DNA from: Pelobacter seleniigenes DSM 18267
GTDB lineage: Bacteria; Desulfobacterota; Desulfuromonadia; Desulfuromonadales; Geopsychrobacteraceae
NCBI RefSeq assembly: GCF_000711225.1
Contig: NZ_JOMG01000002.1
Span: 322,501 to 386,500 of the forward strand
Direction of reading: 5' to 3'
DNA length: 64,000 nt
This document shows positions 288 through 52,825 of this stretch, piece by piece. The notes beneath the pieces were generated by a model that was not told where the DNA came from, did no database searches, and saw nothing but the letters and a program-made list of their open reading frames with translations. The position numbers were made by a program, and so were the translations under genes. Positions within the stretch are counted from its first letter, which is position 1; each line of letters opens with the position of its first letter.

Positions 288-363
288 CTCAATAATAACA
301 GAATCCTGAGGAATGTTTGTTCGACGCAGAATCGCCCTGCAGTGAGCCCATCCCGAACAGATC

Positions 364-468
364 CTAACAAGTTAATTCTGCAGGATTTTCTGACATCCCC
401 CAAAAAATTATGCCTTTCCAAAGCCAGGTGAAAAGGCCCGCAATCGGGTTAAAGTGTGGATCGGCCAT
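364..468 (-). CDS. Possible small membrane protein, 34 residues
   Basis: A short open frame on the minus strand starts with ATG at 468, preceded by GGAG at nine bases. It encodes MADPHFNPIAGLFTWLWKG followed by a hydrophobic IIFWG stretch and a polar tail ending in TC. The central part could form one short membrane helix. It lies after the terminator hairpin of the universal stress gene, so it would need its own promoter or read-through. I know no family for it. The ribosome binding site and the hydrophobic pattern are the only support, and it may be chance. Confidence 0.2.
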   Translation of the reverse strand: MADPHFNPIAGLFTWLWKGIIFWGMSENPAELTC

Positions 469-501
469 TGCACCACGCTCCATCTTTTTCAGATAAACCG
501 C

Positions 502-534
502 AAAAAAAAGAGCACCTGAAAAATTCAAGTGCTC
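502..534 (-). terminator. Rho-independent terminator after the universal stress gene
   Basis: On the minus strand GAGCACTTGAA pairs with TTCAGGTGCTC (510-534, one mismatch) and is followed by eight T residues. It lies 64 bases after the stop of the universal stress protein gene and closes the first TRAP locus. The plus-strand side also carries an A/T-rich tail, so it may work weakly in both directions. Confidence 0.8.
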
Positions 535-597
535 TGAAAAAAACATTGCTCCCGCACCGGCCCACCCGGGCGGTGAAATCAACTCTCGCCGGTCTGG

Positions 598-1092
598 TCA
601 GGAGCCGACATTGGGGGGAACAATGACCACGGTCCGGTGGGTTTTGCGCAGGACTTTCTCTGCGACACTCCCCAGGAAGGCATAGTGCAGCCGCCCCTTG
701 CTATGACTGCCCAAAACGATCATATCGACTTCAAGCCGATCAGCCACGCTCAAAATCATCGATACCGGTTCACCATGGTGCACTTCGATCTGCGGAGGAT
801 GGACCACTTCCTCTGCCATCAGCTCAGTCTCCTGCTGGATGATCTGCTGCAGCTGCTCCCTGGTCTGACCGGCAAGCTCAGCCTCATTCTCCTTATTGAG
901 TTTGGCCAGCTTGTCCGCGCCCATGGAAAGCGCGACATAATTCAGCACCGCGGCATCGACAGTCGGCATGACATGCAGCACATACACCTGAGCATGGAAT
1001 TTACAAGCTAGCTCCAGTGCATAACGGATCACCCGTGAAGATTCCTTGCTCAAATCCTTCGCAACCAGAATTTTTTTGATTTGAATACTCAT
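598..1092 (-). CDS. Universal stress protein UspA family, TRAP-associated
   Basis: This is a single-domain Usp protein of 164 residues. It starts with a beta strand (IKKILVAKDLS) and ends with the nucleotide-binding pattern VLGSHSKGRL followed by GSVAEKVLRKTHRTVVIVP, which matches the GxxGxnxxxxxGS(V/T) signature of ATP-binding Usp proteins. An in-frame upstream ATG exists at 1113, but ATG 1092 has AAGGAGG at the right distance and gives the usual family start, so I chose it. The gene is last in the TRAP locus, about 100 bases after the permease gene. Usp proteins encoded next to TRAP transporters are known (TeaD beside TeaABC in Halomonas), where they modulate transport. A similar role here is inference. 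Confidence 0.88.
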   Translation of the reverse strand: MSIQIKKILVAKDLSKESSRVIRYALELACKFHAQVYVLHVMPTVDAAVLNYVALSMGADKLAKLNKENEAELAGQTREQLQQIIQQETELMAEEVVHPPQIEVHHGEPVSMILSVADRLEVDMIVLGSHSKGRLHYAFLGSVAEKVLRKTHRTVVIVPPNVGS

Positions 1093-1126
1093 GACGGCCT
1101 CCTTGGTTCTCATCTGATTCCTGGAA

Positions 1127-1169
1127 CCACCTGTTTCTCTCTAGAATATCAGCTGAACGAAACAGGTGG
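1127..1169. other. Inverted repeat between TRAP permease and Usp genes
   Basis: CCACCTGTTTC (1127-1137) is an exact inverted copy of GAAACAGGTGG (1159-1169), separated by 21 bases. It has no T tract on the minus strand, so it is not a classical terminator. It could be an mRNA hairpin protecting or separating the permease and usp segments, or a binding site. Only the repeat itself is observed. Confidence 0.5.
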
Positions 1170-1188
1170 TCTGCTGCCCGTAAATAAT

Positions 1189-3774
1189 TCAGGCAGAAAC
1201 AGGGACGGACTGTTGTTTTTTTCTTCTCCGGGACTGAATAAACCAGAGCAGGCCGTAGAGCATTGCGGTCGGAATATAGACCATCTCTTTCGGCGGACGG
1301 TGTGTTGCGACCTGGATGTTCAAAACCTCCTGGTCGAAATCGACCCCGGCTTTTTCAGCGGGACTGGAAAACACCACATTATCGATAAAGACCCGGCCAT
1401 CTTCTTCGCGGGTTTCAAAACCGATCTCTGCCAGGCGTTCCGCACCGGTGGGCTCGTCTCCGACAGTCAACATGATGACCTTGGTGAATTCCTTGCCGTT
1501 CATCTTTTCGCCCTTAAGGGTCAGACGCAGCGGCGAGCCGGGATCTTCATCAGCCACCCAGCTCTCAAGCTGGGCCGGGGGCTCTTCAACCAAAGGCGGA
1601 TAAATTTCATCCCAGACAATGCCGGGCCGGAACAGCAACAGGGCGATCAGCAGCAAAGCAGCGGTCTCCCAGAGCCGACACTTGACCAGGAAATACCCCT
1701 GGGTTCCTGCGGCAAAGGCGAGCATGGCGAAAATTGCCGCGACAATGGTCACCAGCAGGTGGTACCAGTGATCGATGCCGATCATCAGCAACTGGGTGTT
1801 GAAGATAAACATGAAGGGCAAAATCGCCGTCCGGATGTCGTACATAAACCCCTGGATGCCGGTCTTGATCGGATCGCCGCCGGAGATTCCGGCTGCCGCA
1901 AACGCCGCCAGGCCGACCGGCGGGGTATCGTCGGCCAGAATCCCGAAGTAGAACACGAACAGGTGCACGGCAATCAGCGGTACGATCAACCCGTTCTGAG
2001 CACCGAGATCGACAATGACCGGAGCCATCAGGGTTGAGACCACGATGTAGTTGGCGGTGGTCGGCAACCCCATCCCGAGCAGCAGGCTGATCACCGCAGT
2101 AAAGAGCAGGATCAGCATCAGGTTACCGCCGGAAATGAATTCGACAAACTCGGTCATGACCAGGCCGATGCCGGTCAAGGTGACGGTTCCAACCACGATG
2201 CCGGCGGCGGCCGTAGCGACCCCGATACCGATCATATTGCGCGCGCCGGCAACCATCCCTTGGATCAAATCGACACAACCCGTCTTGAAGGAGAATTCTT
2301 CGCCGCTCATTTTGCGCAACACCCCTTTTAAAGGGCGCTGAGTGAGAAGTATAAAAATCATCAGCACCGTCGCCCAGTAAGCGGACAGCGCCGGCGACAG
2401 CCGTTCAACGGTCAGACACCACATCAGCACCACCACCGGCAACAGGAAATAATAACCGGCCTGCGCCGTGGGTCCCAGCGGCGGCAATTCGTTGATTTCG
2501 GTGGTCAGCTCCAGTTCCGGAACCCGGCAGGCCACCCAGAGCAGGAAGAGGTAAGCCACCACCAGCAACACCGAGACAATATAGATAGTCGCCGAACCGG
2601 CCACCCCTTTGATCCAGCCCAGTCCGAAGTAAGTCACGCCGCCGATGATGATCAGGGTCAGGATGGTCAGGACAAAAGAAAGAATCCGCTGGGAGATAGT
2701 CTTGGTAATGACCTTCTCCATTCCCTCCAGACCCATTTTACAGGCTTCGAGGTGAACGATGTAAACCAGAGCAATGTAGGAGATAATAGCCGGCAGGAAG
2801 GCATGCTTGATGACGTCGATATAACTGATCCCAACATACTCGACCATCAGGAAGGCGGCGGCTCCCATAACCGGCGGCATCAGCTGCCCGTTGGTGGAAC
2901 AGGCAACCTCGATGGCACCGGCCTTTTCGGCCTTAAACCCGACCTTCTTCATCAATGGGATGGTAAAGGTGCCGGTGGTCACCACGTTGGCAATGGACGA
3001 ACCGGACACCAATCCGGTCAAACCGGAAGAAACGACGGCAGCCTTGGCCGGGCCGCCTCTCAGGTGACCGAGCGCTGCAAAGGCGGTGCGGATAAAATAA
3101 TTGCCGGCGCCGGCGGCTTCAAGGAGCGCACCAAACAGGACGAACATGAACACCATGCCGGAGGACACCCCCAGCGCAACCCCGAAAACCCCTTCGGTGC
3201 CGAGCCAGTAATGGGACATTCCCTTAGCCAGGCTGGCCCCTTTGTGGGAAATGACATCGGGCATGTACTGGCCGCCGAAGGTATAGAGGATAAAGATCGT
3301 GGCGACCACCATAAGTGGCGGCCCCAAGGCTCGGCGGGTCGACTCCAGCAACAGGATCAGACCGCAGACCGCCACCACCAGGTCCAAGGTGGTCGGGTTA
3401 CCGGGGCGATCCGCCAGCGCAGAATAAAAGATGAACAGGTAGGCCGAACAAAAAGCGCCGATCAACCCGAGCACCCAATCCTGCACCGGAATATATTTGG
3501 TCGGAGACCGCTTGAAGGTAGGAAAAGCGGTGAAAGAAAGAAAAATCGCAAAAGCCAGGTGAATCGCCCGCGCCTCGGTATCATTGAGGACAAACACATT
3601 GAGCAAAAACGGTAAGGGTGAAGCATACCAGAGCTGGAACAGTGTCCAGGCCAGAGGCACGTAAAAGAGCACTTTCTTGGGAATGGCTCCGCTTGGATTA
3701 CGTGCACCAGACTCCGCTTCCACAATCGCCTCGGGGTTTTCTACAGTGATTTTGGTTTCTTTCTCTTTGGCCAT
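1189..3774 (-). CDS. TRAP transporter permease, fused 4TM/12TM (TAXI type), with C-terminal extension
   Basis: This 861-residue inner-membrane protein combines the small (DctQ-like) and large (DctM-like) TRAP permease parts in one chain, the usual arrangement for TAXI-TRAP systems. It uses ion gradients to import a substrate delivered by the binding protein encoded upstream. Residues about 30-180 hold the small-subunit helices. From about 190 the DctM part begins, with the family signatures GLVSGSSIANVVTTGTFTIP, MLLGMGLPTTANYIVVSTLM-like and FGILADDTPPVGLAAFAAAG. The last 150 or so residues, after further helices, form a soluble domain resembling the DUF3394 tail found in many fused TRAP permeases. 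ATG 3774 has AAGGA upstream. The gene follows the TAXI binding-protein gene after a hairpin. Confidence 0.93.
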   Translation of the reverse strand: MAKEKETKITVENPEAIVEAESGARNPSGAIPKKVLFYVPLAWTLFQLWYASPLPFLLNVFVLNDTEARAIHLAFAIFLSFTAFPTFKRSPTKYIPVQDWVLGLIGAFCSAYLFIFYSALADRPGNPTTLDLVVAVCGLILLLESTRRALGPPLMVVATIFILYTFGGQYMPDVISHKGASLAKGMSHYWLGTEGVFGVALGVSSGMVFMFVLFGALLEAAGAGNYFIRTAFAALGHLRGGPAKAAVVSSGLTGLVSGSSIANVVTTGTFTIPLMKKVGFKAEKAGAIEVACSTNGQLMPPVMGAAAFLMVEYVGISYIDVIKHAFLPAIISYIALVYIVHLEACKMGLEGMEKVITKTISQRILSFVLTILTLIIIGGVTYFGLGWIKGVAGSATIYIVSVLLVVAYLFLLWVACRVPELELTTEINELPPLGPTAQAGYYFLLPVVVLMWCLTVERLSPALSAYWATVLMIFILLTQRPLKGVLRKMSGEEFSFKTGCVDLIQGMVAGARNMIGIGVATAAAGIVVGTVTLTGIGLVMTEFVEFISGGNLMLILLFTAVISLLLGMGLPTTANYIVVSTLMAPVIVDLGAQNGLIVPLIAVHLFVFYFGILADDTPPVGLAAFAAAGISGGDPIKTGIQGFMYDIRTAILPFMFIFNTQLLMIGIDHWYHLLVTIVAAIFAMLAFAAGTQGYFLVKCRLWETAALLLIALLLFRPGIVWDEIYPPLVEEPPAQLESWVADEDPGSPLRLTLKGEKMNGKEFTKVIMLTVGDEPTGAERLAEIGFETREEDGRVFIDNVVFSSPAEKAGVDFDQEVLNIQVATHRPPKEMVYIPTAMLYGLLWFIQSRRRKKQQSVPVSA

Positions 3775-3882
3775 AACAATGAATCCTTCACGAATATGAA
3801 TGCAGGGGTTCCAGTCCGATTGGTCAGTTCACCTCGTCAGCCAACATATTCAGGTGCGTATATTCTCACGACATTCCAGCAG

Positions 3883-3916
3883 AAAAAAAATGCACCGCGC
3901 CCGCGGTGCATTTTTT
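3883..3916 (-). terminator. Terminator-like hairpin between TAXI binding protein and permease
   Basis: TGCACCGC-GCCC-GCGGTGCA (3891-3910) is a perfect eight-base-pair stem with a four-base loop, followed on the minus strand by eight T residues (3883-3890). It lies 18 bases after the binding-protein stop and about 110 bases before the permease start. As the permease clearly belongs to the same system, it most likely acts as a partial terminator or 3'-end stabiliser that makes more binding protein than permease. Confidence 0.75.
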
Positions 3917-3934
3917 AATCAGACAAACATGATG

Positions 3935-4909
3935 TTACATCAATCCGGCTTCTTTATAGTACTTGACGGCACCGGCATGCAGCGGAGCGGACAGGCCGTC
4001 CTTGATCATCTCTTCTTTTTTCAGATTCTCAAAAGCCGGATGCAGTTTTTTGAAATCATCAAAGTTTTCAAAGACCGCTTTGACGACATTGTAGATGACA
4101 TCTTCCGGGACCTTGGCAGAGGTCACGAAGGTGGCGCCGACACCGAAGGTTTTGGTGTCTTCATCAGTTCCACGGTACATCCCGCCGGGGATGGTGGCAT
4201 AGCGGTAGTAGGCATTTTCTTTGACCAGCTTGTCGATCGCCGGACCGGTCACATTGACCAGAACCGAGTCACAAGAGGTGGTGGCTTCCTTGATGGAACC
4301 GCTCGGGTGGCCAACAGTGAAGATCATGGCGTCGATTTTATTGTCGCACAGCGCAGCGGACTGCTCGGCGGATTTCAGCTCGGAAGCCAGCTTGAAGTCA
4401 TCATTGGTCCAGCCCAGGGCTTTCATGACCACTTCCATGGTGCCGCGCTGGCCGGAACCGGGGTTACCGATGTTGACGCGCTTGCCTTTGAGATCCTGGA
4501 AATTCTTGATGCCGGAATCGGCACGAGCGACCACGGTAAAGGGCTCGGGGTGAATCGAAAAAACGGCGCGGAGGTCTTTATTGGCGCCGGCATCGGCAAA
4601 TTTACTGGTGCCATGATAGGCATGATACTGCCAGTCGGATTGGGCCACGCCCATATCCAGCTCACCGTTGGCGATGGCGTTCAGGTTATAAACCGAGCCG
4701 CCGGTACTTTCAACAGAGCAGCGAATACCATGTTCTTTTCTGGTCTTGTTGACCAGCCGACAGATGGCACCACCGGTCGGGTAGTAAACGCCCGTCACAC
4801 CACCGGTACCAATCGTTACGAACTGGTTCTCTGCTTCAGCCTGACTCACGGGAACGAAACTGGCCGCAACAGCAAACGCCAACAAAAGCATGAAAAACTT
4901 TTTCATCAA
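3935..4909 (-). CDS. TAXI family TRAP transporter solute-binding protein
   Basis: This is a periplasmic binding protein of 324 residues. A signal peptide occupies residues 1-26 (hydrophobic [15 protein letters not shown], then QAEA). The mature part starts with [22 protein letters not shown], the pattern that defines the TAXI (TRAP-associated extracytoplasmic immunogenic) family, and continues with [24 protein letters not shown] proteins hand ligands to fused TRAP permeases; reported ligands include glutamate and other carboxylates, but the ligand cannot be read here. ATG 4909 is preceded by GAGGAG. It is the first structural gene after a predicted sigma-54 promoter and a divergent-free 350-base regulatory region downstream of the response-regulator gene. 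Confidence 0.93.
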
Positions 4910-5002
4910 TACTCCTCCTCTGAAGTCATTGTGTTTTGTCTCCCCTTTGGCAAGGCAGACCCGATCATAAACTCATCAATTTTAACGTAGTTATTACCTA
5001 AA

Positions 5003-5017
5003 GCAAGTTCGATACCA
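5003..5017 (-). promoter_or_regulatory. Sigma-54 (-24/-12) promoter for the TAXI-TRAP genes
   Basis: On the minus strand the sequence TGGTAT-CGAAC-TTGC, continued by TTT, fits the consensus TGGCAC-N5-TTGCW with the invariant GG and GC exactly ten bases apart. It lies about 95 bases before the TAXI gene start. The adjacent regulator is an NtrC-family sigma-54 activator with a GAFTGA motif, which makes this element functionally sensible. Two positions of the -24 box deviate from consensus. Confidence 0.6.
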
Positions 5018-5150
5018 GAACTCATTAAATTGGCAACTATCTGAAATAGAGAGGAAAAGTTAAAAACAGTCGGGGAAGGCACCACGGCAAACCGTATAAC
5101 CAAATTCAGTCCGGCGCCATGAAAGTCAATTTTTCCAATAGAAAACAAAA

Positions 5151-5195
5151 GGTTACGCACCCATAACCAAAGAAATAATTATAACCCTGGTTATA
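5151..5195. promoter_or_regulatory. Two dyad sites, probable activator-binding sequences for the TAXI-TRAP regulator
   Basis: GGTTA-N8-TAACC (5151-5168) and the near-perfect palindrome TATAACCCTGGTTATA (5180-5195) share the half-site GGTTA/TAACC. They stand roughly 135-190 bases upstream of the predicted sigma-54 promoter, the normal position for enhancer sites. Another TAACC half-site lies near 5097-5101. Binding by the regulator encoded at 5256-6671 is inference. Confidence 0.5.
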
Positions 5196-5255
5196 GGTGT
5201 TTGACGGGCTGGCGAATAAGCTGACTTCGCCCCTGCTGTCTTTTTCAACGTCCTG

Positions 5256-6671
5256 CTAATGGCGATCCTGGCGCAGGCGCTTACTGAGAGCGGGCTGGGA
5301 AATGCCGAGTAGTCGGGCGGCAATGGTCTGGTTACCGGCGGAACGCTGCATGGCTTCGTCAACCAGCAATTGCCCGGCCTGTTGCAGGGAGGGCAGTTCA
5401 TCCAGAGTAACAAACGGATTCCTCGGGTCTGAGTCTTTGGTCAGGGCCGGTAGCTCATGATGCTGGCCGATACGGTCCAGAAAACTCTTCATGGAGAGGG
5501 TTTTGGCATTGTGAATGCTGACGGCGTCGTAAACCATAGCCTCCAACTCGCGGACATTGCCCGGAAAGTTGTAGGTCGACAGCAATACAGCCAACTCTTT
5601 GGGCGGGGTCGGTTTCTTTTTACCGAGCTTCGCGGCCGCCCGGCCCAGAAAATGGTCGAGCAGCAACGGCAGATCATCCTTGCGCTCACGCAGCGGCGGT
5701 AGATGTACATGATGGGAAATCAGCCGGTAATAGAGATCCCGCCGAAACTCACCGGCAGCCATTTTGGCTTCGAGATCGGCATGGGTGGCGACAATCACCC
5801 GGGCCGTCATCTGCTTGGGCAAGTCGCTGCCGAGGGGATAATATTCACCGTCCTGCAGCAGCCGCAACAGCTTGACCTGGGAGGCAAAGCTGAGATCGCC
5901 GATTTCATCGAGAAACAGGGTCCCTTCCGCGGCCTGTTCGATCATCCCCTTGCGCGCCCCTTCCGCGCCGGTAAAGGCTCCGCGTACATGGCCGAACAGG
6001 GTATCGGCAAAAACGTTGTCATCCAGGCCGGCCACATTGACCGACACCAGCGTACCGCCATTGCAGCCCAGATCATGCACGGCCCGGGCAATCAGTTCTT
6101 TGCCGACACCGCTCTCACCGGTAATCAGAATCGGCTGGGAACTGGGTGCCACCGCTTCCAGGTATTGAAAGCAGGCGCGCATGGCCGGATTATCGGTCAC
6201 AATCGGGGAAAAAGCTTCCGGCGAGTCGAGCTGATTGGCAAAAAAGCGCCGCCGCATGGCCTGGTTTTCCTGTTCCAGTTCAACCATGCGAATCGCCCGC
6301 CTGACCCCGTCCACCAGGCGTTCTTCATCAACGGTTTTGACAAAATAATCGAAGGCTCCCAGGCGCATGCAGTTCACCGCGGTCTCGAGCTGATTCATGC
6401 CGCTGAGAATGATCACCCGAACCTGCGGATGTTCAGTCACGATCTGTTCCAGCAGTTCTTCCCCGGAGCGATACGGCATGGTCAGATCAAGCAACACCAG
6501 GCCGATATCATGGTCTTCCAGCATACTCATGACCTGCCGGCTGTCATGGCACTGTTGCAGGTTGGTGATGCCGCCGGGGCCCTCAAGGGTCATGCTCAGG
6601 CTGCGCAGCCAGGGCAGTTCGTCATCGACCAGCAGAACACCGAAGGCCGGGTAGAGTTTTTTATCCATCAT
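5256..6671 (-). CDS. Sigma-54-dependent response regulator (NtrC/DctD type)
   Basis: This 471-residue regulator has three domains. The receiver domain (about 12-125) has the acidic pair at 16-17 and the phosphorylatable aspartate at 62 (LLDLTMP). The AAA+ domain (about 155-375) has the Walker A GESGVGKE at 185-192, the sigma-54 contact loop GAFTGA at 231-236 and Walker B LFLDEIGDL. The C-terminal Fis-type helix-turn-helix ends with SAGNQTIAARLLGISQPALS. It should activate sigma-54 promoters when phosphorylated by the kinase encoded just upstream; the genes overlap by 11 bases. Two ATG codons are adjacent at 6671 and 6668, with GAGGAGA before them. Target: most simply the TAXI-TRAP promoter about 240 bases downstream. 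The AAA+ domain is strikingly similar to that of the regulator at 58938-60380. Confidence 0.93.
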   Translation of the reverse strand: MMDKKLYPAFGVLLVDDELPWLRSLSMTLEGPGGITNLQQCHDSRQVMSMLEDHDIGLVLLDLTMPYRSGEELLEQIVTEHPQVRVIILSGMNQLETAVNCMRLGAFDYFVKTVDEERLVDGVRRAIRMVELEQENQAMRRRFFANQLDSPEAFSPIVTDNPAMRACFQYLEAVAPSSQPILITGESGVGKELIARAVHDLGCNGGTLVSVNVAGLDDNVFADTLFGHVRGAFTGAEGARKGMIEQAAEGTLFLDEIGDLSFASQVKLLRLLQDGEYYPLGSDLPKQMTARVIVATHADLEAKMAAGEFRRDLYYRLISHHVHLPPLRERKDDLPLLLDHFLGRAAAKLGKKKPTPPKELAVLLSTYNFPGNVRELEAMVYDAVSIHNAKTLSMKSFLDRIGQHHELPALTKDSDPRNPFVTLDELPSLQQAGQLLVDEAMQRSAGNQTIAARLLGISQPALSKRLRQDRH

Positions 6672-22002: not shown

Positions 22003-23337
22003 TTATCTGATGCGCCGGCATTCCAGGTAAAAACGCTTTTCATCTGCTTCGCCCATGGAAAAGGTTTTCCGCGGCAGAGCTCCATCGTGCACGATGGTCT
22101 TGAACAAGTCGCTTTTGGCAAGCGCTGGCAGGTAGAAGCCGACACAACCGATTTTGTTGCCCAGATCGGTCACGCTCTTTTCGCCGTGAATATAGTCGAT
22201 ACGCGTGCCCGGGTGGTTATCAAGGTAATGGTCGAGGAACGCCTGCAGCGTGGCGACGGCCAGAGTGAATTCCGGCTTTTCCACCGTGCAGACACCAAAC
22301 CTTCCGCCCAGAATCACCGCAAATGAATGCGTGAGAGTACTGTTCTCTGCCGCGATCTCTTGTGCTTCGGCAAGATCCGTGCACACTTCGAAGCTGAACG
22401 GTGTGTTGCGGGCCGCGAAAAACGCCTCCATCTGCTGCTTGATGTGAACACAGTTGACATTAAACAGGACCCGGTGGATCGCTTCAAATTCGAGCCCCGG
22501 ATCATGGACATTGACCAGTTCCACCAGGGCGTAACGGGCCGGGTGATCCATGACCTGACGGGGGTCGTCGGCTTCTTCTTTCAATTTTTCCCAGATCGCC
22601 TTCGCCGTGGCGAAGGAATGATTACCGTCGCCCATGGCGTAAAGCATGACCTCGCCATCAGTTGCGTATTTTTCACGGTACGCGGCCGGGTCGGCCAGTT
22701 GCTCCAGCGCCTCGGCCACCTGCCGGATCAACTCCGGCTGATCCACCCGGTAGCCCCTGAGGTGGCCGCCGTTCTCCAGCAGATCGAAATCGTAAAGGGT
22801 GTCGAGATTCTCGTCAGCCAACGGCTCGATCACCATGCGCTGCGGATCGTCGATCAAGACCATGATGTGCGGCAACTCGATTGGAGCGTTCTCGCGCACC
22901 CGGATCCGCGGCGGCAGACGGTCAAGAATGGTGCCTTCCGTGGCCCGGATCAGGCTGTCGGCACCTTTGCGATAATCGTAGCATTCCAGGTCCAGGGCCA
23001 CGATCAGTCCCTTGCGTGAGGGGACTTCAGCGGTTTTGCGATCGACCAGGACAAATCCGGGCGGCTGCTCTTCCAGGCTGCCGTCGGCCAGGTATTGCTC
23101 CATGGTTCGGTTGATTGCGGCAATCCGCTGTTCAGCGTCCTGATCTTCCAGATAGACTTCGGGAAAGATCAGCTTGAGGGTCGAGGGCCGCTCCGCGACC
23201 TGTTCCGCCAGGCGCAGCCAGTAGCTCCGGTCCGAGGTATATTGATCACAGGCGATCACCGCCCAGCTCTGCATGTCGATCCCCTTGCCGGGCAGCAGGA
23301 TTTTCGGCACCTGCAGGCCGATATCAGCAAAACTCAT
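22003..23337 (-). CDS. DUF1015 family protein
   Basis: This 444-residue protein belongs to the widespread DUF1015 family of unknown function, cytoplasmic by appearance. Family marks are WAVIACDQYTSDRSYW near the start, PPRIRVRENAPIELPHIMVLIDD, and the strongly conserved MGDGNHSFATAKAIWE. In many genomes this family neighbours serine or phosphonate metabolism genes; no such neighbour is seen here. ATG 23337 gives the normal N-terminus MSFADIGLQVPK. The gene ends 33 bases before the palindromic repeat and starts 31 bases from a 171-base dispersed repeat. Confidence 0.85.
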   Translation of the reverse strand: MSFADIGLQVPKILLPGKGIDMQSWAVIACDQYTSDRSYWLRLAEQVAERPSTLKLIFPEVYLEDQDAEQRIAAINRTMEQYLADGSLEEQPPGFVLVDRKTAEVPSRKGLIVALDLECYDYRKGADSLIRATEGTILDRLPPRIRVRENAPIELPHIMVLIDDPQRMVIEPLADENLDTLYDFDLLENGGHLRGYRVDQPELIRQVAEALEQLADPAAYREKYATDGEVMLYAMGDGNHSFATAKAIWEKLKEEADDPRQVMDHPARYALVELVNVHDPGLEFEAIHRVLFNVNCVHIKQQMEAFFAARNTPFSFEVCTDLAEAQEIAAENSTLTHSFAVILGGRFGVCTVEKPEFTLAVATLQAFLDHYLDNHPGTRIDYIHGEKSVTDLGNKIGCVGFYLPALAKSDLFKTIVHDGALPRKTFSMGEADEKRFYLECRRIR

Positions 23338-23367
23338 TTTGGTGTCCTTGCACGTTATCTCGTTATC

Positions 23368-23538
23368 ATCCGGAAACGGCCCTTTTCCGCCGTGGCGGTG
23401 TTAATCTGTGGGCTTATTTGTGCGGCGTAAAGAACGACGCCTCCGCATAAGCCCTTGATTTCCTTGCCACAACGAAAAATTTCTCGTTCCCAATCTAAAA
23501 ACTTATGCGTTGGCATCCGGAAACTCCGGATGCCAACT
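23368..23538 (+). repeat. 171-bp dispersed repeat, copy A
   Basis: This block matches the reverse complement of 50496-50666 over the same 171 bases with about a dozen differences by eye. It starts ATCCGGAAACGGCCC, contains CTCCGCATAAGCCCTTGA and ends with a hairpin made of GCATCCGG and CCGGATGC. CTTATGCG and CGCATAAG inside it can pair over a longer distance. No protein-coding constraint is evident. See the paired copy after livF. Confidence 0.85.
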
Positions 23539-23654
23539 ATCTATAAAACAGAATTGAAGTCGCTTGATGCGGGCTATCATTGGTATCATGTTTTGCCCCG
23601 CTTGAGAACCGTATCTCTGCTTCTTAAGTTTAAAAAGCCCCTATTTTAATAGAC

Positions 23655-23683: not shown

Positions 23684-23703
23684 CAGGATCACAATTGAAT
23701 TGT

Positions 23704-23900
23704 TTCATGGTGCCGCAAGGCCTGTTCGTATTGAAGCGAACAGATGGGAAGAGGGGTGAAATTCCCCCACGGACCCGCCGCTGTAATTGAGCCTCGTCAG
23801 ACGATATGCCACTGGTCAACCACTGGGAAGGCCGCCTGACTCTTCGCCGGCTGTTTGCCGTCGAAACCTCGTAAGCCAGAAGACCTGCCGTGAAACAGGG
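23704..23900 (+). promoter_or_regulatory. Cobalamin riboswitch (B12 element)
   Basis: The leader carries the conserved core of the AdoCbl-class aptamer: GGTGAAATTCCC, then CACGGACCCGCCGCTGTAA, and the 3' B12 box AAGCCAGAAGACCTGCC (23873-23889). The 5' arm GGTGCCGCAAGGCCTG and several internal stems fit the fold. It sits between a strong promoter and a terminator hairpin in front of the TonB-dependent receptor gene, the usual place for B12-repressed uptake genes. When cobalamin binds, the downstream genes should be switched off. Confidence 0.95.
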
Positions 23901-23997
23901 TGACCTGCAAACTGCCAGATGACGTTGCAGGAAACCATTGACTTTCATCTCCCCGGGTATGGGAGCTCGAACTCGCGCGGTTACAAATACGGAATCT

Positions 23998-49739: not shown

Positions 49740-50464
49740 TGCTTTTGGAAGTCGAAAACCTCGAAGTCAAGTACGGTAACATTCAGGCCCTGCACGGAAT
49801 CAGCTTCCACGTCAACGAAGGTGAAATCGTCACCCTGATCGGCGCCAACGGTGCGGGGAAGACCACCAGTCTCTACACCATTGCCCGCCTGCCGCCGCCG
49901 GAAGCTCCGCGGGTAGTCGGTGGTGATATCAGGTTCCAGGGTGAATCGATCCTCAAGACCCGGCCGAGTGATGTGGTCAAAAATCTGCATTTGGCGCTTT
50001 CCCCGGAAGGCCGGCGGATCTTTGGCAACCTGACGGTGATGGAGAACCTGCAACTGGCCACCTATTCCCGGGAAAAGGGAGCTGACCTGAAAAAGGAATA
50101 CGACTACGTCTTTGAACTGTTCCCCCGCCTCAAAGAGCGCCACAACCAGCGCAGCGAATCGTTAAGCGGTGGCGAACAGCAGATGCTGGCGGTCGGCCGG
50201 GCGCTGATGACCGGCTGTAAAATCCTCCTCCTCGACGAACCGAGTATGGGCCTGGCGCCGGTTTTGAAATATGAACTGTTCCGCAAACTCAAACAGCTGA
50301 ACGAAGAGGGCATGACCATCCTGCTGGTGGAACAGAACGCCAATCTGGCATTAAATCTTGCCCACCGCGGTTACGTTCTGGATACCGGCCATATCGCTGC
50401 CGCCGGCACCAGCAAGGAACTGCTCGGCAATCCGGAGGTCAAGAAAGCCTACCTCGGCGGTTGA
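49739..50464 (+). CDS. livF: Branched-chain amino-acid ABC transporter ATPase LivF
   Basis: This 241-residue ATPase has Walker A GANGAGKTT, signature LSGGEQQMLAVGRAL and Walker B ILLLDEPSMGLAPVL, with VEQNANLALNLAHRGYVLDTG near the end, all typical of LivF. It completes the livJHMGF operon. The second copy of a 171-base repeat and a terminator follow. Confidence 0.95.
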   Translation: MLLEVENLEVKYGNIQALHGISFHVNEGEIVTLIGANGAGKTTSLYTIARLPPPEAPRVVGGDIRFQGESILKTRPSDVVKNLHLALSPEGRRIFGNLTVMENLQLATYSREKGADLKKEYDYVFELFPRLKERHNQRSESLSGGEQQMLAVGRALMTGCKILLLDEPSMGLAPVLKYELFRKLKQLNEEGMTILLVEQNANLALNLAHRGYVLDTGHIAAAGTSKELLGNPEVKKAYLGG

Positions 50465-50495
50465 GTATCCACAACGCTGCAAACCCGCGATAATT

Positions 50496-50666
50496 AGTTG
50501 GCATCAGGAAACTCCGGATGCTAACGCATAAGTTTTCAGATTGGAAACGAGAAATTTTTCGTTGTGGCAAGGAAATCAAGGGCTTATGCGGAGGCGTAGT
50601 TCTGTACGCCGCACCAATAAGCCCGCAGATTGACACCGCCACGGCGGAAAAGGGCCGTTTCCGGAT
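50496..50666 (-). repeat. 171-bp dispersed repeat, copy B
   Basis: This is the inverted counterpart of 23368-23538, equal in length and about 93 percent identical by eye. Differences cluster in the terminal hairpin, where the loop between GCATCCGG and its partner is in the opposite orientation. It lies between the livF stop and the operon terminator, so it would be part of the liv transcript. Confidence 0.85.
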
Positions 50667-50678
50667 GAAAACTAATTA

Positions 50679-50869: not shown

Positions 50870-52825
50870 ATGCGTTCTTTTTCACTCAGAACCAAACTCA
50901 TTGCGGGTGGCGTTCTTTTCCCGGCAGCCTTGCTGCTGGGACTATTTATTACCTTCTACCACCATGAAAAGACCTCGACTGTCGATGCAGTGGTGGCCAA
51001 ATCGAGAATCCTGGCCAGAACCCTTGAATCGACTCGGATGGAAATGGAAGACAAATGGAACATGGGACTGTTTAATGTCGGCCAACTCAAAGAATGGGCC
51101 GACCAGGGGCACACCGACAAAGTGCTGGCCAGTGTCCCGGTGGTGACCGCCTGGCAAGCGGCCATGCGCAAGGCCACCGAAAGCGACTATACCTTCAAGG
51201 TCCCCAAATTCCAGCCGCGCAACCCCAAGAACACCCCGAATGCAATTGAAAGCAGAGCGCTGCAGACCATGAAACAGCAGGGTCTGGACGAGTATTACGA
51301 GATCAATCCACAGACCAACGCCGTCCATTATTTCCGGGCGGTCTATTTGGCCGATTCGTGCCTTTATTGCCATGGTGAGCCGGCTAAGTCCGCTGAGTAC
51401 TGGGGGAACAATCAGGGGCTTGATCCCACCGGCGTCAAAATGGAAGGGTGGAAAAGCGGCGAGATGCACGGGGCCTTTGAAATCATCCATTCCCTGAACG
51501 AAGCGGATACCGCGCTGGCCTCGACAATGAGCTGGTCCGGCGGTCTGTTTGTCGTATTGCTCGCTGTCGCCGGCGGCCTGATTGCGCTTTTCACCACTAA
51601 AGCGGTGGTAAATCCGGTTCGTCAGACCATGGAAATGATTGAAGGGCTCGAACATGGCCAACTGGATAACCGAATCGACACCAGGCGCAAGGATGAGTTG
51701 GGTCGGCTGGCCCGGGCCATGAACGGCTTTGCCGACAACCTCCGCGACGAAGTGCTGGGCGCATTCAATCACCTGGCCAACGGCGATTTCAGTTTCGAGG
51801 CCAAAGGATTGATTGCGGCCCCGCTAGCCAAAGCCTGCCAGGGCCTGACCACAGCCATGCAGACGGTCAAAGAAGCCAGCGAGCAGATAGCCTCAGGTGC
51901 CATCCAGGTCGCAGAGACCAGTTCTTCCCTGGCCAACGGCGCAACCCAGCAGGCGGCGGCCATTGAAGAGATCTCGGCGTCCATGACCCAGATGAACGAG
52001 CAGACCACCAACAACGCCGACAATGCCACAACCGCGAATAAGCTCTCGGTTGAAGCCCGTGAAAATGCCGCAAAAGGGAATGAGCAGATGCAGGCCATGG
52101 TCGACGCAATGGAAGAAATCAAAACCTCTTCCCAGGATATCAGCAAGATCATCAAGGTCATTGACGAGATTGCCTTCCAGACCAATCTGCTGGCGCTCAA
52201 TGCCGCGGTCGAAGCCGCCCGGGCCGGTCAGCACGGCAAAGGCTTTGCGGTTGTTGCCGAGGAGGTTCGCAACCTCGCCGCCCGCAGTGCCAAGGCCGCC
52301 AGCGAAACCACCGCTCTGATCCAGGGCTCGGTCGACAAAACCAATAATGGGGCCGCGATCGCCGAACAAACCGCCGAATCCCTGGCCCAGATCGTCCAGG
52401 ACGTCACCAAGGTCTCTGACCTGGTTGCCGAAATTGCCGCGGCCAGCCACGAACAATCACAGGGGATTTCCCAGGTCAACGAAGGGCTGGCCCAGTTGAA
52501 TGATGTCAACCTGCGCACGACCTCGACCTCGGAAGAAAGCGCAGCCATCGCTGAACAGCTGTCCGGCCAGACCTGCGACTTACAACAAATGCTCGGCCGC
52601 TTCACTCTGCAAGGGGAAAGAAAAGCGTCTCCCCCGCTCCAGGCCAAGCCGGTCATGACAACCCCGAAACCAGCGCAGCCGACTCAGCCGCAATCGCGCA
52701 AGGCCTTGCCTCAACAGGCACGGGCTGCCAAGCAGTCTGCCGCACCGAAAAAAGCCGAAGAATGGGGCGGTATTCCGGCCAAGCCCGTCATCAAGCTTGA
52801 CGATGACGATTTCGGCAAATATTAA
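50870..52825 (+). CDS. Methyl-accepting chemotaxis protein with c-type heme motif (DUF3365)
   Basis: This 651-residue chemoreceptor has a first membrane helix (residues about 10-30), a periplasmic DUF3365 (Tll0287-like) sensor domain, a second helix (about 224-243), a HAMP domain (about 245-297) and a cytoplasmic signalling domain with [20 protein letters not shown] and [13 protein letters not shown]. The sensor domain carries CLYCH (164-168), a CxxCH motif that covalently binds heme c after export. It may sense redox state, oxygen or nitric oxide. The C-terminal tail is Pro/Ala/Gln-rich and ends without an NWETF pentapeptide. ATG 50870 has CAGGAGCT upstream. Confidence 0.93.

What the first reader, a model, noticed from the sequence alone, without database searches (positions are those of the whole stretch)
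23368..23538. 171-bp inverted repeat pair, copies at 23.4 and 50.5 kb
Two 171-base copies in opposite orientation, about a dozen differences, each placed just outside a gene end or start. Each contains a GCATCCGG hairpin and long-range complementary CTTATGCG/CGCATAAG segments, and the terminal loop is flipped between copies, which suggests compensatory or inversion-type change. It does not resemble an insertion sequence with a gene. It may be a mobile non-coding element or a structured RNA motif.
Basis: seen in the sequence. Interest (0 to 1): 0.65.

Follow-up and report, generated by a model that had tools for sequence, protein, structure and literature searches.

The report
Phylum-wide mobile hairpin repeat element
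The two repeats are copies of a short non-coding jumping element that folds into a long hairpin; about a hundred copies sit in this genome, relatives occur across its phylum, and copies that have lost their ends often lie right at the end of a gene, which suggests a jumping repeat that hosts may have put to use.

Summary
The two copies (176 bp, 163 of 176 identical) are 2 of about 97 in this 5.1 Mb genome (99 matches). The element looks like a non-autonomous transposon (MITE): ends GTNNNCATCCGGAAAC, one end folded back as a 29-nt hairpin, and a 6-bp target duplication of the type YANNTA (34 of 41 copies at least 5/6 identical; shuffles mean 10.5, maximum 20). Its ~141-nt core occurs in 72 of 297 genomes sampled from the phylum, own genome included. 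The core covaries strongly (28 of 48 pairs changed on both sides) and G·U exceeds A·C on one strand, so one single strand seems constrained. No Rfam match (window and six loci), no coding signal. Copies without recognisable ends mostly abut a stop codon (64 of 81; random places 53 of 945), for example of nifH, nifD, nifK, groES, groEL, argF and argG. Some of these carry the central palindrome of the 'predicted short RNA elements' reported from Geobacter metallireducens in 2009 (27 of 90). No transposase partner and no empty site were found. Kinship with the Chunjie MITE could not be tested.

The parts
23362..23537 (-). element copy 1, whole (hairpin-first reading)
   Evidence: ends fixed by the alignment of 41 copies and the flanking duplication
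23509..23537 (-). terminal hairpin of copy 1 (GTTGGCATCCGGA / TCCGGATGCCAAC) that contains one end of the element; loop turned round against most copies looked at
23362..23502 (-). core of copy 1 (141 nt, model R1)
   Evidence: C2:345862-346002:-
23420..23444 (-). conserved apical hairpin of copy 1 (GGAGGCGT...ACGCCGCAC)
   Evidence: sequence; column conservation
23356..23361 (.). target-site duplication, left (TATCTC)
   Evidence: 5 of 6 identical to the right copy
23538..23543 (.). target-site duplication, right (TATCTA)
50497..50672 (+). element copy 2, whole
50497..50525 (+). terminal hairpin of copy 2
50532..50672 (+). core of copy 2 (141 nt, model R1)
   Evidence: C2:373032-373172:+
50590..50614 (+). 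conserved apical hairpin of copy 2
50491..50496 (.). target-site duplication, left (TAATTA)
   Evidence: 6 of 6 identical
50673..50678 (.). target-site duplication, right (TAATTA)

Best explanation
It is a non-autonomous, non-coding transposable element of 176 bp. Shown: two inverted ends (GTNNNCATCCGGAAAC), one of them doubled into a 29-nt terminal hairpin, a 6-bp duplication of a YANNTA target, about 97 copies that lie almost only between genes, relatives across the phylum, and a 141-nt core that keeps one hairpin fold by compensatory change. Inferred: a DDE-type transposase supplied in trans pairs the two ends, cuts with a 6-nt stagger at YANNTA and moves the DNA; it was not found. Inferred: the core is kept because one strand of it, the hairpin-first strand, acts as a folded single strand (RNA, or single-stranded DNA during mobility). 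Copies that lack recognisable ends lie mostly antisense against the 3' end of a gene, directly at the stop codon and often between genes of an operon; there I think they were domesticated as gene-end elements. What they do there (transcript-end protection, termination, antisense RNA) is not shown.
For: Copies: 41 by BLAST, 99 matches by model. Flank duplication: 34 of 41 own copies at least 5/6 (5000 shuffles: mean 10.5, maximum 20); a second count by end detection, without shuffles, gives 46 of 62 own and 38 of 55 in other genomes. Short derivatives keep both ends and the duplication. Spread: 36 of 60 genomes by BLAST and 72 of 297 genomes, 55 of 199 genera, of the phylum by model, own genome included in both. 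Covariation: 28 of 48 pairs changed on both sides, 94.0% of cells paired, 0 of 500 shuffles reach it, slid structures 42-48% (MAFFT alignment of 38 copies). Strand: G·U to A·C 197:42; in MAFFT alignments 105:19 on this strand and 22:52 on the other for 43 copies with ends, 133:39 and 43:53 for 88 end-less copies; this strand folds lower in 42 of 43, 46 of 47, 86 of 88 and 92 of 97 copies. Gene ends: 64 of 81 end-less copies have a stop codon at the core's 3' side (tested -15 to +30 nt, found -11 to +15), 15 of 81 at the other side, random 53 of 945. At equivalent places in different genomes 5 to 11 pairs differ on both sides and still pair.
Against: No transposase with these ends was found, but the search was partial: the own-genome list showed only the first 100 of 247 end-like matches, of which 14 had no core beside them, and 19 unpaired exact matches in 6 other genomes were looked at, one of them in full. 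PF14236, PF01609, PF01797 and PF05598 loci show no pair of ends. No empty site in a relative was shown. In the own genome there is little orientation bias (downstream gene same strand 50, opposite 30; upstream 39 and 41), so the gene-end pattern belongs to other genomes. The strand that folds best is antisense to the gene it abuts, which is awkward for a plain mRNA element. Part of the pair counts come from alignments fitted to the model, which lean towards it. Between equivalent places 3 to 11 pairs are broken in one partner. The end-less class is defined by a simple pattern and mixes decayed copies with truly end-less ones.
Confidence: 0.8

Rival explanations
1. It is an ordinary MITE whose fold has no role. 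The two arms are kept alike by template switching at a palindrome (which also turns loops round), so covariation is a mutational by-product.
For: Turned terminal loops in a few copies and deletion derivatives at the hairpin show that palindrome errors occur; MITE transcripts are commonly stable hairpins (review PMC10969869, passages seen).
Against: Template switching should treat both strands alike, but G·U exceeds A·C on one strand only. Unpaired stretches and internal loops are conserved at the same places in 38 copies from many genera. Twenty chosen gene-end copies still covary (39 of 48 pairs changed on both sides, fitted alignment).
Confidence: 0.2
2. It is a host RNA gene or cis-regulatory RNA family (as proposed for G. 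metallireducens in 2009) that multiplied by duplication; the flanking repeats are incidental.
For: End-less copies lie at gene ends in nif, gro, arg and cys operons, and 27 of 90 of them carry the published palindrome GRCGTAGCGCTGCTACGCC.
Against: In copies with ends the flanks are identical within a copy and differ between copies; duplication does not give that. None of 44 copies with both ends carries the published palindrome. Own copies show no consistent gene orientation.
Confidence: 0.1
3. It is a REP-like element moved by a Y1 (RAYT/IS200-type) transposase acting on folded single-stranded DNA.
For: One strand is constrained, terminal hairpins are present, and the genome has 7 Y1_Tnp matches.
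Against: Such enzymes make no target duplication (general knowledge); a duplication is seen. In the DNA fetched round the 7 Y1 genes (about 1.5 kb on each side) there is a single two-mismatch match to the ends and no pair.
Confidence: 0.05
4. The core encodes a small protein (one frame reads FSDWKRAIFR...GGVVLYAAQ...).
For: That frame is the most often open one: 49 of 97 own cores, 23 of 38 in the mixed alignment.
Against: About half of the copies have a stop in it, core lengths differ by single bases, and variability is equal in the three codon positions (0.082, 0.076, 0.075).
Confidence: 0.01

Closest known systems
[quoted passage not shown] Aklujkar et al. 2009, PMC2700814)
   Same: Central palindrome GRCGTAGCGCTGCTACGCC is the apical hairpin, read on the other strand, of 27 of 90 end-less cores; intergenic, inside operons (between dapAB and dapL); also reported from G. 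sulfurreducens, G. uraniireducens and Desulfotalea psychrophila (passages seen).
   Different: None of 44 copies with both ends, and none of the own loci L001-L041, has that exact palindrome; they have other loops. The passages seen do not mention ends, target duplications, mobility or covariation. The published alignment is in a supplement that could not be opened, so identity of the families rests on the palindrome and the setting.
Chunjie, a MITE of Geobacter uraniireducens Rf4 (Chen et al. 2008, Genetics 179:2291)
   Same: According to a review (PMC10969869, passages seen): a MITE of 178-235 bp with inverted ends and direct repeats, 38 copies and 57 partial ones, intergenic, one in a phosphate uptake operon. 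Similar size (176 bp here; a 246-bp form in genome G039) and host group.
   Different: Its sequence is not in any source open to me (paper not held). It may be the same superfamily or unrelated; not tested.
MITEs in general (Correia, QMITE, BOX, RUP)
   Same: Below 500 bp, no gene, inverted ends, target duplication, many intergenic copies, stable fold.
   Different: A compensatorily evolving core held over a phylum, and one strand preferred, are not part of the usual description (recalled; the review passages seen do not mention covariation).
REP/BIME elements with RAYT
   Same: Short hairpins at gene ends.
   Different: Target duplication present; no Y1 gene seen linked to the ends.

Membership tests
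MITE (non-autonomous DNA transposon) | short (<500 bp) and without a gene | tested here: met
   176 bp; no coding signal
MITE (non-autonomous DNA transposon) | terminal inverted repeats | tested here: met
   GTNNNCATCCGGAAAC-like sequence at both ends of most own copies shown and of relatives
MITE (non-autonomous DNA transposon) | target-site duplication of fixed length | tested here: met
   6 bp, a few 7 bp
MITE (non-autonomous DNA transposon) | many dispersed intergenic copies | tested here: met
   99 matches; 3 of 97 inside an ORF of my crude gene calls
MITE (non-autonomous DNA transposon) | an autonomous element with the same ends, active in trans | tested here: inconclusive
   none found, but only the first 100 of 247 end-like matches of the own genome were listed and 19 places in 6 other genomes looked at; a partner with diverged ends is not excluded. 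No IS family is assigned
Predicted short RNA family of G. metallireducens (2009) | central palindrome GRCGTAGCGCTGCTACGCC | tested here: inconclusive
   present in 27 of 90 end-less cores, in 0 of 44 cores with both ends and in none of the own loci L001-L041; palindrome from the paper
Predicted short RNA family of G. metallireducens (2009) | intergenic, within operons | tested here: met
   for end-less copies
Predicted short RNA family of G. metallireducens (2009) | alignment of the published 24 sequences with the core | not testable with these tools
Chunjie MITE | sequence of its ends and direct repeats | not testable with these tools
   paper not held
REP/RAYT | Y1 transposase gene linked to the same hairpins | tested here: not met
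   7 Y1_Tnp loci, no pair of the ends; one two-mismatch match in L366
REP/RAYT or IS200/IS605 derivative | insertion without target duplication | tested here: not met
   duplication seen
ISDol1/DruA-type partner (PF14236), considered from memory | gene flanked by the element's ends | tested here: not met
   no match in the own genome (the control genomes did not ring either), 13 of 136 genomes of the order with a match; none of 30 loci scanned shows a pair of ends, single hits have 2-3 mismatches
Any of 4227 Rfam families | score above the family's threshold | tested here: not met
   window at gathering threshold and six loci up to E 1; no match lies on the element

The most novel reading that the evidence does not exclude
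A bacterial counterpart of a SINE-like cycle: the folded hairpin-first strand (RNA or single-stranded DNA) is itself recognised by an unknown mobilising enzyme, so the element spreads by structure; it inserts or is kept antisense at gene ends, and over time loses its ends and becomes a fixed regulatory part of central operons (nif, gro, arg, cys) over a whole phylum.
Probability: 0.2. Interest if true: 0.85.

Novelty: new variant of a known kind. Interest (0 to 1): 0.62.

Why it matters
It joins two things that, as far as my searches show, were noted apart: short repeated 'RNA elements' in Geobacter operons and a transposing MITE. If right, a mobile hairpin has seeded structured elements into the gaps of nitrogenase, chaperonin and biosynthesis operons across a phylum, and leaves a record of the steps: mobile, decaying, end-less and conserved. 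The strand preference makes a clear prediction (one strand acts as RNA or ssDNA) that can be tested in a laboratory Geobacter strain. Rfam has no model for it, although one genome holds about a hundred copies.

Tried and rejected
Autonomous partner: end-pattern search of the own genome (first 100 of 247 matches listed), 14 places without a core read round the end, a scan of all loci then in hand for inward-facing ends with a duplication (two composites of two copies, one tandem, one 295-bp and one 130-bp copy, no gene-bearing pair), Pfam transposase families in the own genome (PF01609 six matches, PF01797 seven, PF05598 one, PF14236 none) and PF14236 in the order: no pair of ends beside any (for PF05598 the same). 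An IS1380-like gene (my reading of the translation) sits next to one end (L105), but it has its own ends CCTGAATCAGTGAG and seems merely to interrupt a copy.

Plasmids and phages: no match to copy 2 at distant BLAST. Gene-disrupting insertions that would show an empty site by a restored reading frame: the 11 frames listed look spurious. Literature: the sequence word 'catccggaaac' gave 7 papers that look unrelated in the listing; searches for Geobacter MITEs, structured mobile RNA in Desulfobacterota, repeats and small RNAs of Geobacter, MITE covariation, Gmet_R1005 and Chunjie (listings only, then passages of four papers) gave the two precedents and nothing that describes the whole.

Considered from memory and dropped: IscB/HEARO and IS110 guide RNAs (no target duplication expected), tyrosine-recombinase coupling sequences (flanks are equal within a copy and differ between copies).

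Full report
What was reported and what is there. The two copies lie at 23362-23537 (- strand) and 50497-50672 (+ strand). They are 176 bp and agree at 163 of 176 positions. Each is flanked by a 6-bp repeat: TATCTC/TATCTA for copy 1 (5 of 6) and TAATTA/TAATTA for copy 2 (6 of 6). Copy 1 lies in the gap between an ORF on the - strand (22003-23337) and a cobalamin riboswitch with a TonB-receptor-like ORF on the + strand; copy 2 lies between an ABC-transporter ATPase-like ORF that ends at 50464 and a chemoreceptor-like ORF that starts at 50870 (gene names other than the riboswitch are my reading of the translations, not a family search).

Copy number. BLAST of the own genome gives 41 long copies of about 85% identity or more (40 of 113 first-look candidates scored). 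A covariance model of the core (R1, 141 positions, built from 38 aligned copies) gives 99 matches, 47 on the + and 52 on the - strand; 150 of 1948 candidates were scored, so this is a lower bound, and two pairs on contigs C3 and C5 have equal scores and look like one place met twice. Two subfamilies dominate among the 41; more distant forms are present in the same genome. Tandem copies with a period of 180-181 bp (C2:132.5 kb, two; C2:187.5 kb, three) fit insertion into the duplication of an older copy (the reading is inference).

Anatomy. Read hairpin first, the element begins GTTGGCATCCGGA, AAC, TCCGGATGCCAAC, that is, one end plus its own mirror image, then 6 nt, then a 141-nt core that ends CGTTTCCGGATGAAAAC. 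The ends agree with the pattern GTNNNCATCCGGAAAC read inwards. In genome G322 a simpler form lacks the extra hairpin and the long arms themselves are the ends (L176).

Target duplication. For 41 aligned own copies, 22 have identical 6-mers on both sides and 34 at least 5 of 6; with flanks shuffled among copies the mean of the latter is 10.5 and the maximum in 5000 trials is 20. The target consensus is T/C-A-N-N-T-A. In a second count by end detection, 46 of 62 own copies and 38 of 55 copies from other genomes reach 5 of 6; inputs were 97 own and 193 other hits, and those in which an end was not found were left out; one contig appears twice among the 55 (L154 and L305, both below 5). No shuffle was run there. 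This is the best evidence that the DNA moved as a unit. An empty site in a relative was not shown.

Spread. Own genome included, BLAST finds it in 36 of 60 relatives, the model in 72 of 297 genomes drawn from the phylum and in 55 of 199 genera (strict filters, 10 candidates scored per genome, so a lower bound). Most titles are Desulfuromonadales, Geobacter and relatives, Desulfobacterales or 'Deltaproteobacteria'; a few are MAG contigs labelled Thermoanaerobaculales, Omnitrophota, Zixibacteria, Clostridia, Chloroflexi, Nitrospirae, Balneolaceae and Myxococcales. I would not build on those without checking the binning: the Chloroflexi contig L233, for example, closely resembles the copy of genome G018. 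Rfam: no match on the element in the window at the gathering threshold and in six loci up to E 1. Plasmid and phage collections: no match to copy 2.

Structure and strand. On a MAFFT alignment of 38 copies, 28 of 48 consensus pairs are changed on both sides in at least one copy, 94.0% of cells pair, the covariation score is 0.342 against 0.164 in shuffles (0 of 500 reach it) and 42-48% of cells pair when the partners are slid. Twenty chosen gene-end copies aligned to the model give 39 of 48 and 91.8% (a fitted alignment, so it leans towards the fold). Departures from Watson-Crick pairing are mostly G·U and less often A·C on the hairpin-first strand: 197 to 42 in 88 rows fitted to the model, 63 to 24 in the MAFFT alignment of 38. 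In MAFFT alignments folded on each strand by itself, 43 copies with ends have 105 to 19 on this strand and 22 to 52 on the other; 88 end-less copies have 133 to 39 and 43 to 53. The hairpin-first strand folds lower in 42 of 43, 46 of 47 and 86 of 88 copies of three classes and in 92 of 97 own cores. A double-stranded palindrome, or template switching between its arms, should not prefer one strand. So a single strand of defined sense, RNA or ssDNA, seems to be under selection. The core does not look like a gene.

Gene ends. I grouped 160 non-redundant hits from other genomes (193 collected; duplicates, those with N, short ones and those nearer than 330 nt to the edge of the stretch dropped) by a simple end pattern. 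A stop codon of an ORF of at least 100 codons was sought from -15 to +30 nt of each side. Of 81 without ends, 64 have one at the core's 3' side (found at -11 to +15), in a gene that runs against the hairpin-first strand, and 15 have one at the other side; for copies with both ends the figures are 15 and 0 of 41, with one end 21 and 4 of 38; random positions 53 of 945. The stop is TAG in 39 of the 64. Part of this is mechanical: an insertion at TANNTA next to the terminal G makes a TAG. The one-sidedness is not explained by that. Of 38 abutting ORFs listed I named 20 with NCBIfam: nifH, nifD, nifK, groES, groEL (twice), argF, argG, cysD, cysH, carA, nadA, sucB, a thiolase and mnmA; 5 of the 20 had no hit at E 1e-20. 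In Geobacter sp. AOG1 (L280) five cores follow one another in one gene row that includes argF and argG. Equivalent positions recur in different genomes: after nifK in L071, L177, L201 and, on one flank, L267; between nifH and nifD in L069 and L193; after groES in L237 and L282 and, on one flank, after groEL in the same two; also L213 and L275. Of the 13 two-flank pairs, four are the same contig met twice, two pair a second core of L201 at a distance, and L218/L044 was not examined. Between the partners compared 5 to 11 pairs differ on both sides and still pair, and 3 to 11 are broken in one of the two. The own genome does not show the gene-end pattern clearly: 80 copies with both neighbours resolved have the upstream gene on the same strand in 39 and opposite in 41, the downstream gene in 50 and 30, and 3 of 97 lie inside an ORF (crude gene calls). 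I read this as young copies scattered by insertion and old copies kept at gene ends. Repeated insertion at the same kind of site is an alternative that I cannot exclude.

A tension remains. In operons the mRNA carries the strand that folds less well. Either an antisense transcript of the hairpin-first strand matters, or the strand preference belongs to the mobile stage and the resident role is a different one. I cannot decide this from sequence.

Mobilising factor. Of 247 end-like matches in the own genome (control 30) the first 100 were listed, and 14 of these had no core beside them; read round the end they are short derivatives, remnants, probable chance matches and one end interrupted by an IS1380-like element. 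Nineteen unpaired exact matches in six other genomes look, from the letters after the end, like copies or derivatives, among them forms of 73 bp and 29 bp that still have the flanking duplication (L347, L349, L361); one, L354, was read in full and is a remnant. The short forms look like deletions across the hairpin. Transposase families PF14236, PF01609, PF01797 and PF05598 gave no gene with a pair of these ends. The partner is unknown and the family of transposase is left open.

What is known. Aklujkar et al. 2009 (PMC2700814; [quoted passage not shown] That exact palindrome is the apical hairpin of 27 of 90 end-less cores; none of 44 cores with both ends and none of the own loci L001-L041 has it. 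So the published family corresponds to the end-less class, and the link to the mobile class rests on the shared core (R1 matches both). A review (PMC10969869; passages seen) describes Chunjie, a MITE of 178-235 bp in G. uraniireducens with inverted ends and direct repeats; its paper is not held, so I could not compare sequences. If Chunjie proves to be the same family, the mobile half of this report is a known kind in a new host and the novelty lies in the phylum-wide core, the strand preference and the gene-end copies. Searches of the open library gave nothing that describes the whole.

Verdict. A MITE-like mobile element with a conserved folded core; a new variant of a known kind. Mobility by transposition about 0.9 likely, a selected single-strand fold about 0.8, a resident role at gene ends about 0.6, any particular mechanism for that role below 0.3.

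Noticed in passing
window 23691-23906 (+): Cobalamin riboswitch (Rfam RF00174, 87.2 bits) directly beside copy 1, upstream of a TonB-receptor-like ORF and transporter-like ORFs.
   Followed up: no
L203, L207, L220:1204-1320, L222, L230, L245: A second palindromic element in Geobacter relatives and a Nitrospirae contig shares the apical hairpin but has other ends (AGGTTGTTCAAAAA...TTTTTCAACAACCT). Further relatives: L216 (GGCTGTTGCAAAA, Omnitrophota) and L202:3530-3654 (GTAAAAAGTC). Possibly a superfamily with one core and exchangeable ends.
   Followed up: partly
L280 (Geobacter sp. AOG1), 358-6132: Five end-less cores follow one another in one gene row with argF and argG.
   Followed up: partly
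L105:5900-7725 (G000 contig C4): An IS1380-like element with ends CCTGAATCAGTGAG interrupts or abuts one end of the repeat.
   Followed up: partly
L365 and pairs at G039:C1:2408977, 2974938, 3451208: A longer form of 246 bp with both ends, in three copies of one genome; close in size to the published Chunjie MITE.
   Followed up: no
L349, L361 (less clear: L356): Solo 29-nt hairpins with both end sequences and flanking repeats, apparently deletions between the two GGATG repeats of a full copy.
   Followed up: partly
core, hairpin-first strand: Two conserved GGA motifs (CAAGGAAAUC and GCGGAGGCG) resemble CsrA sites (motif recalled); not tested.
   Followed up: no
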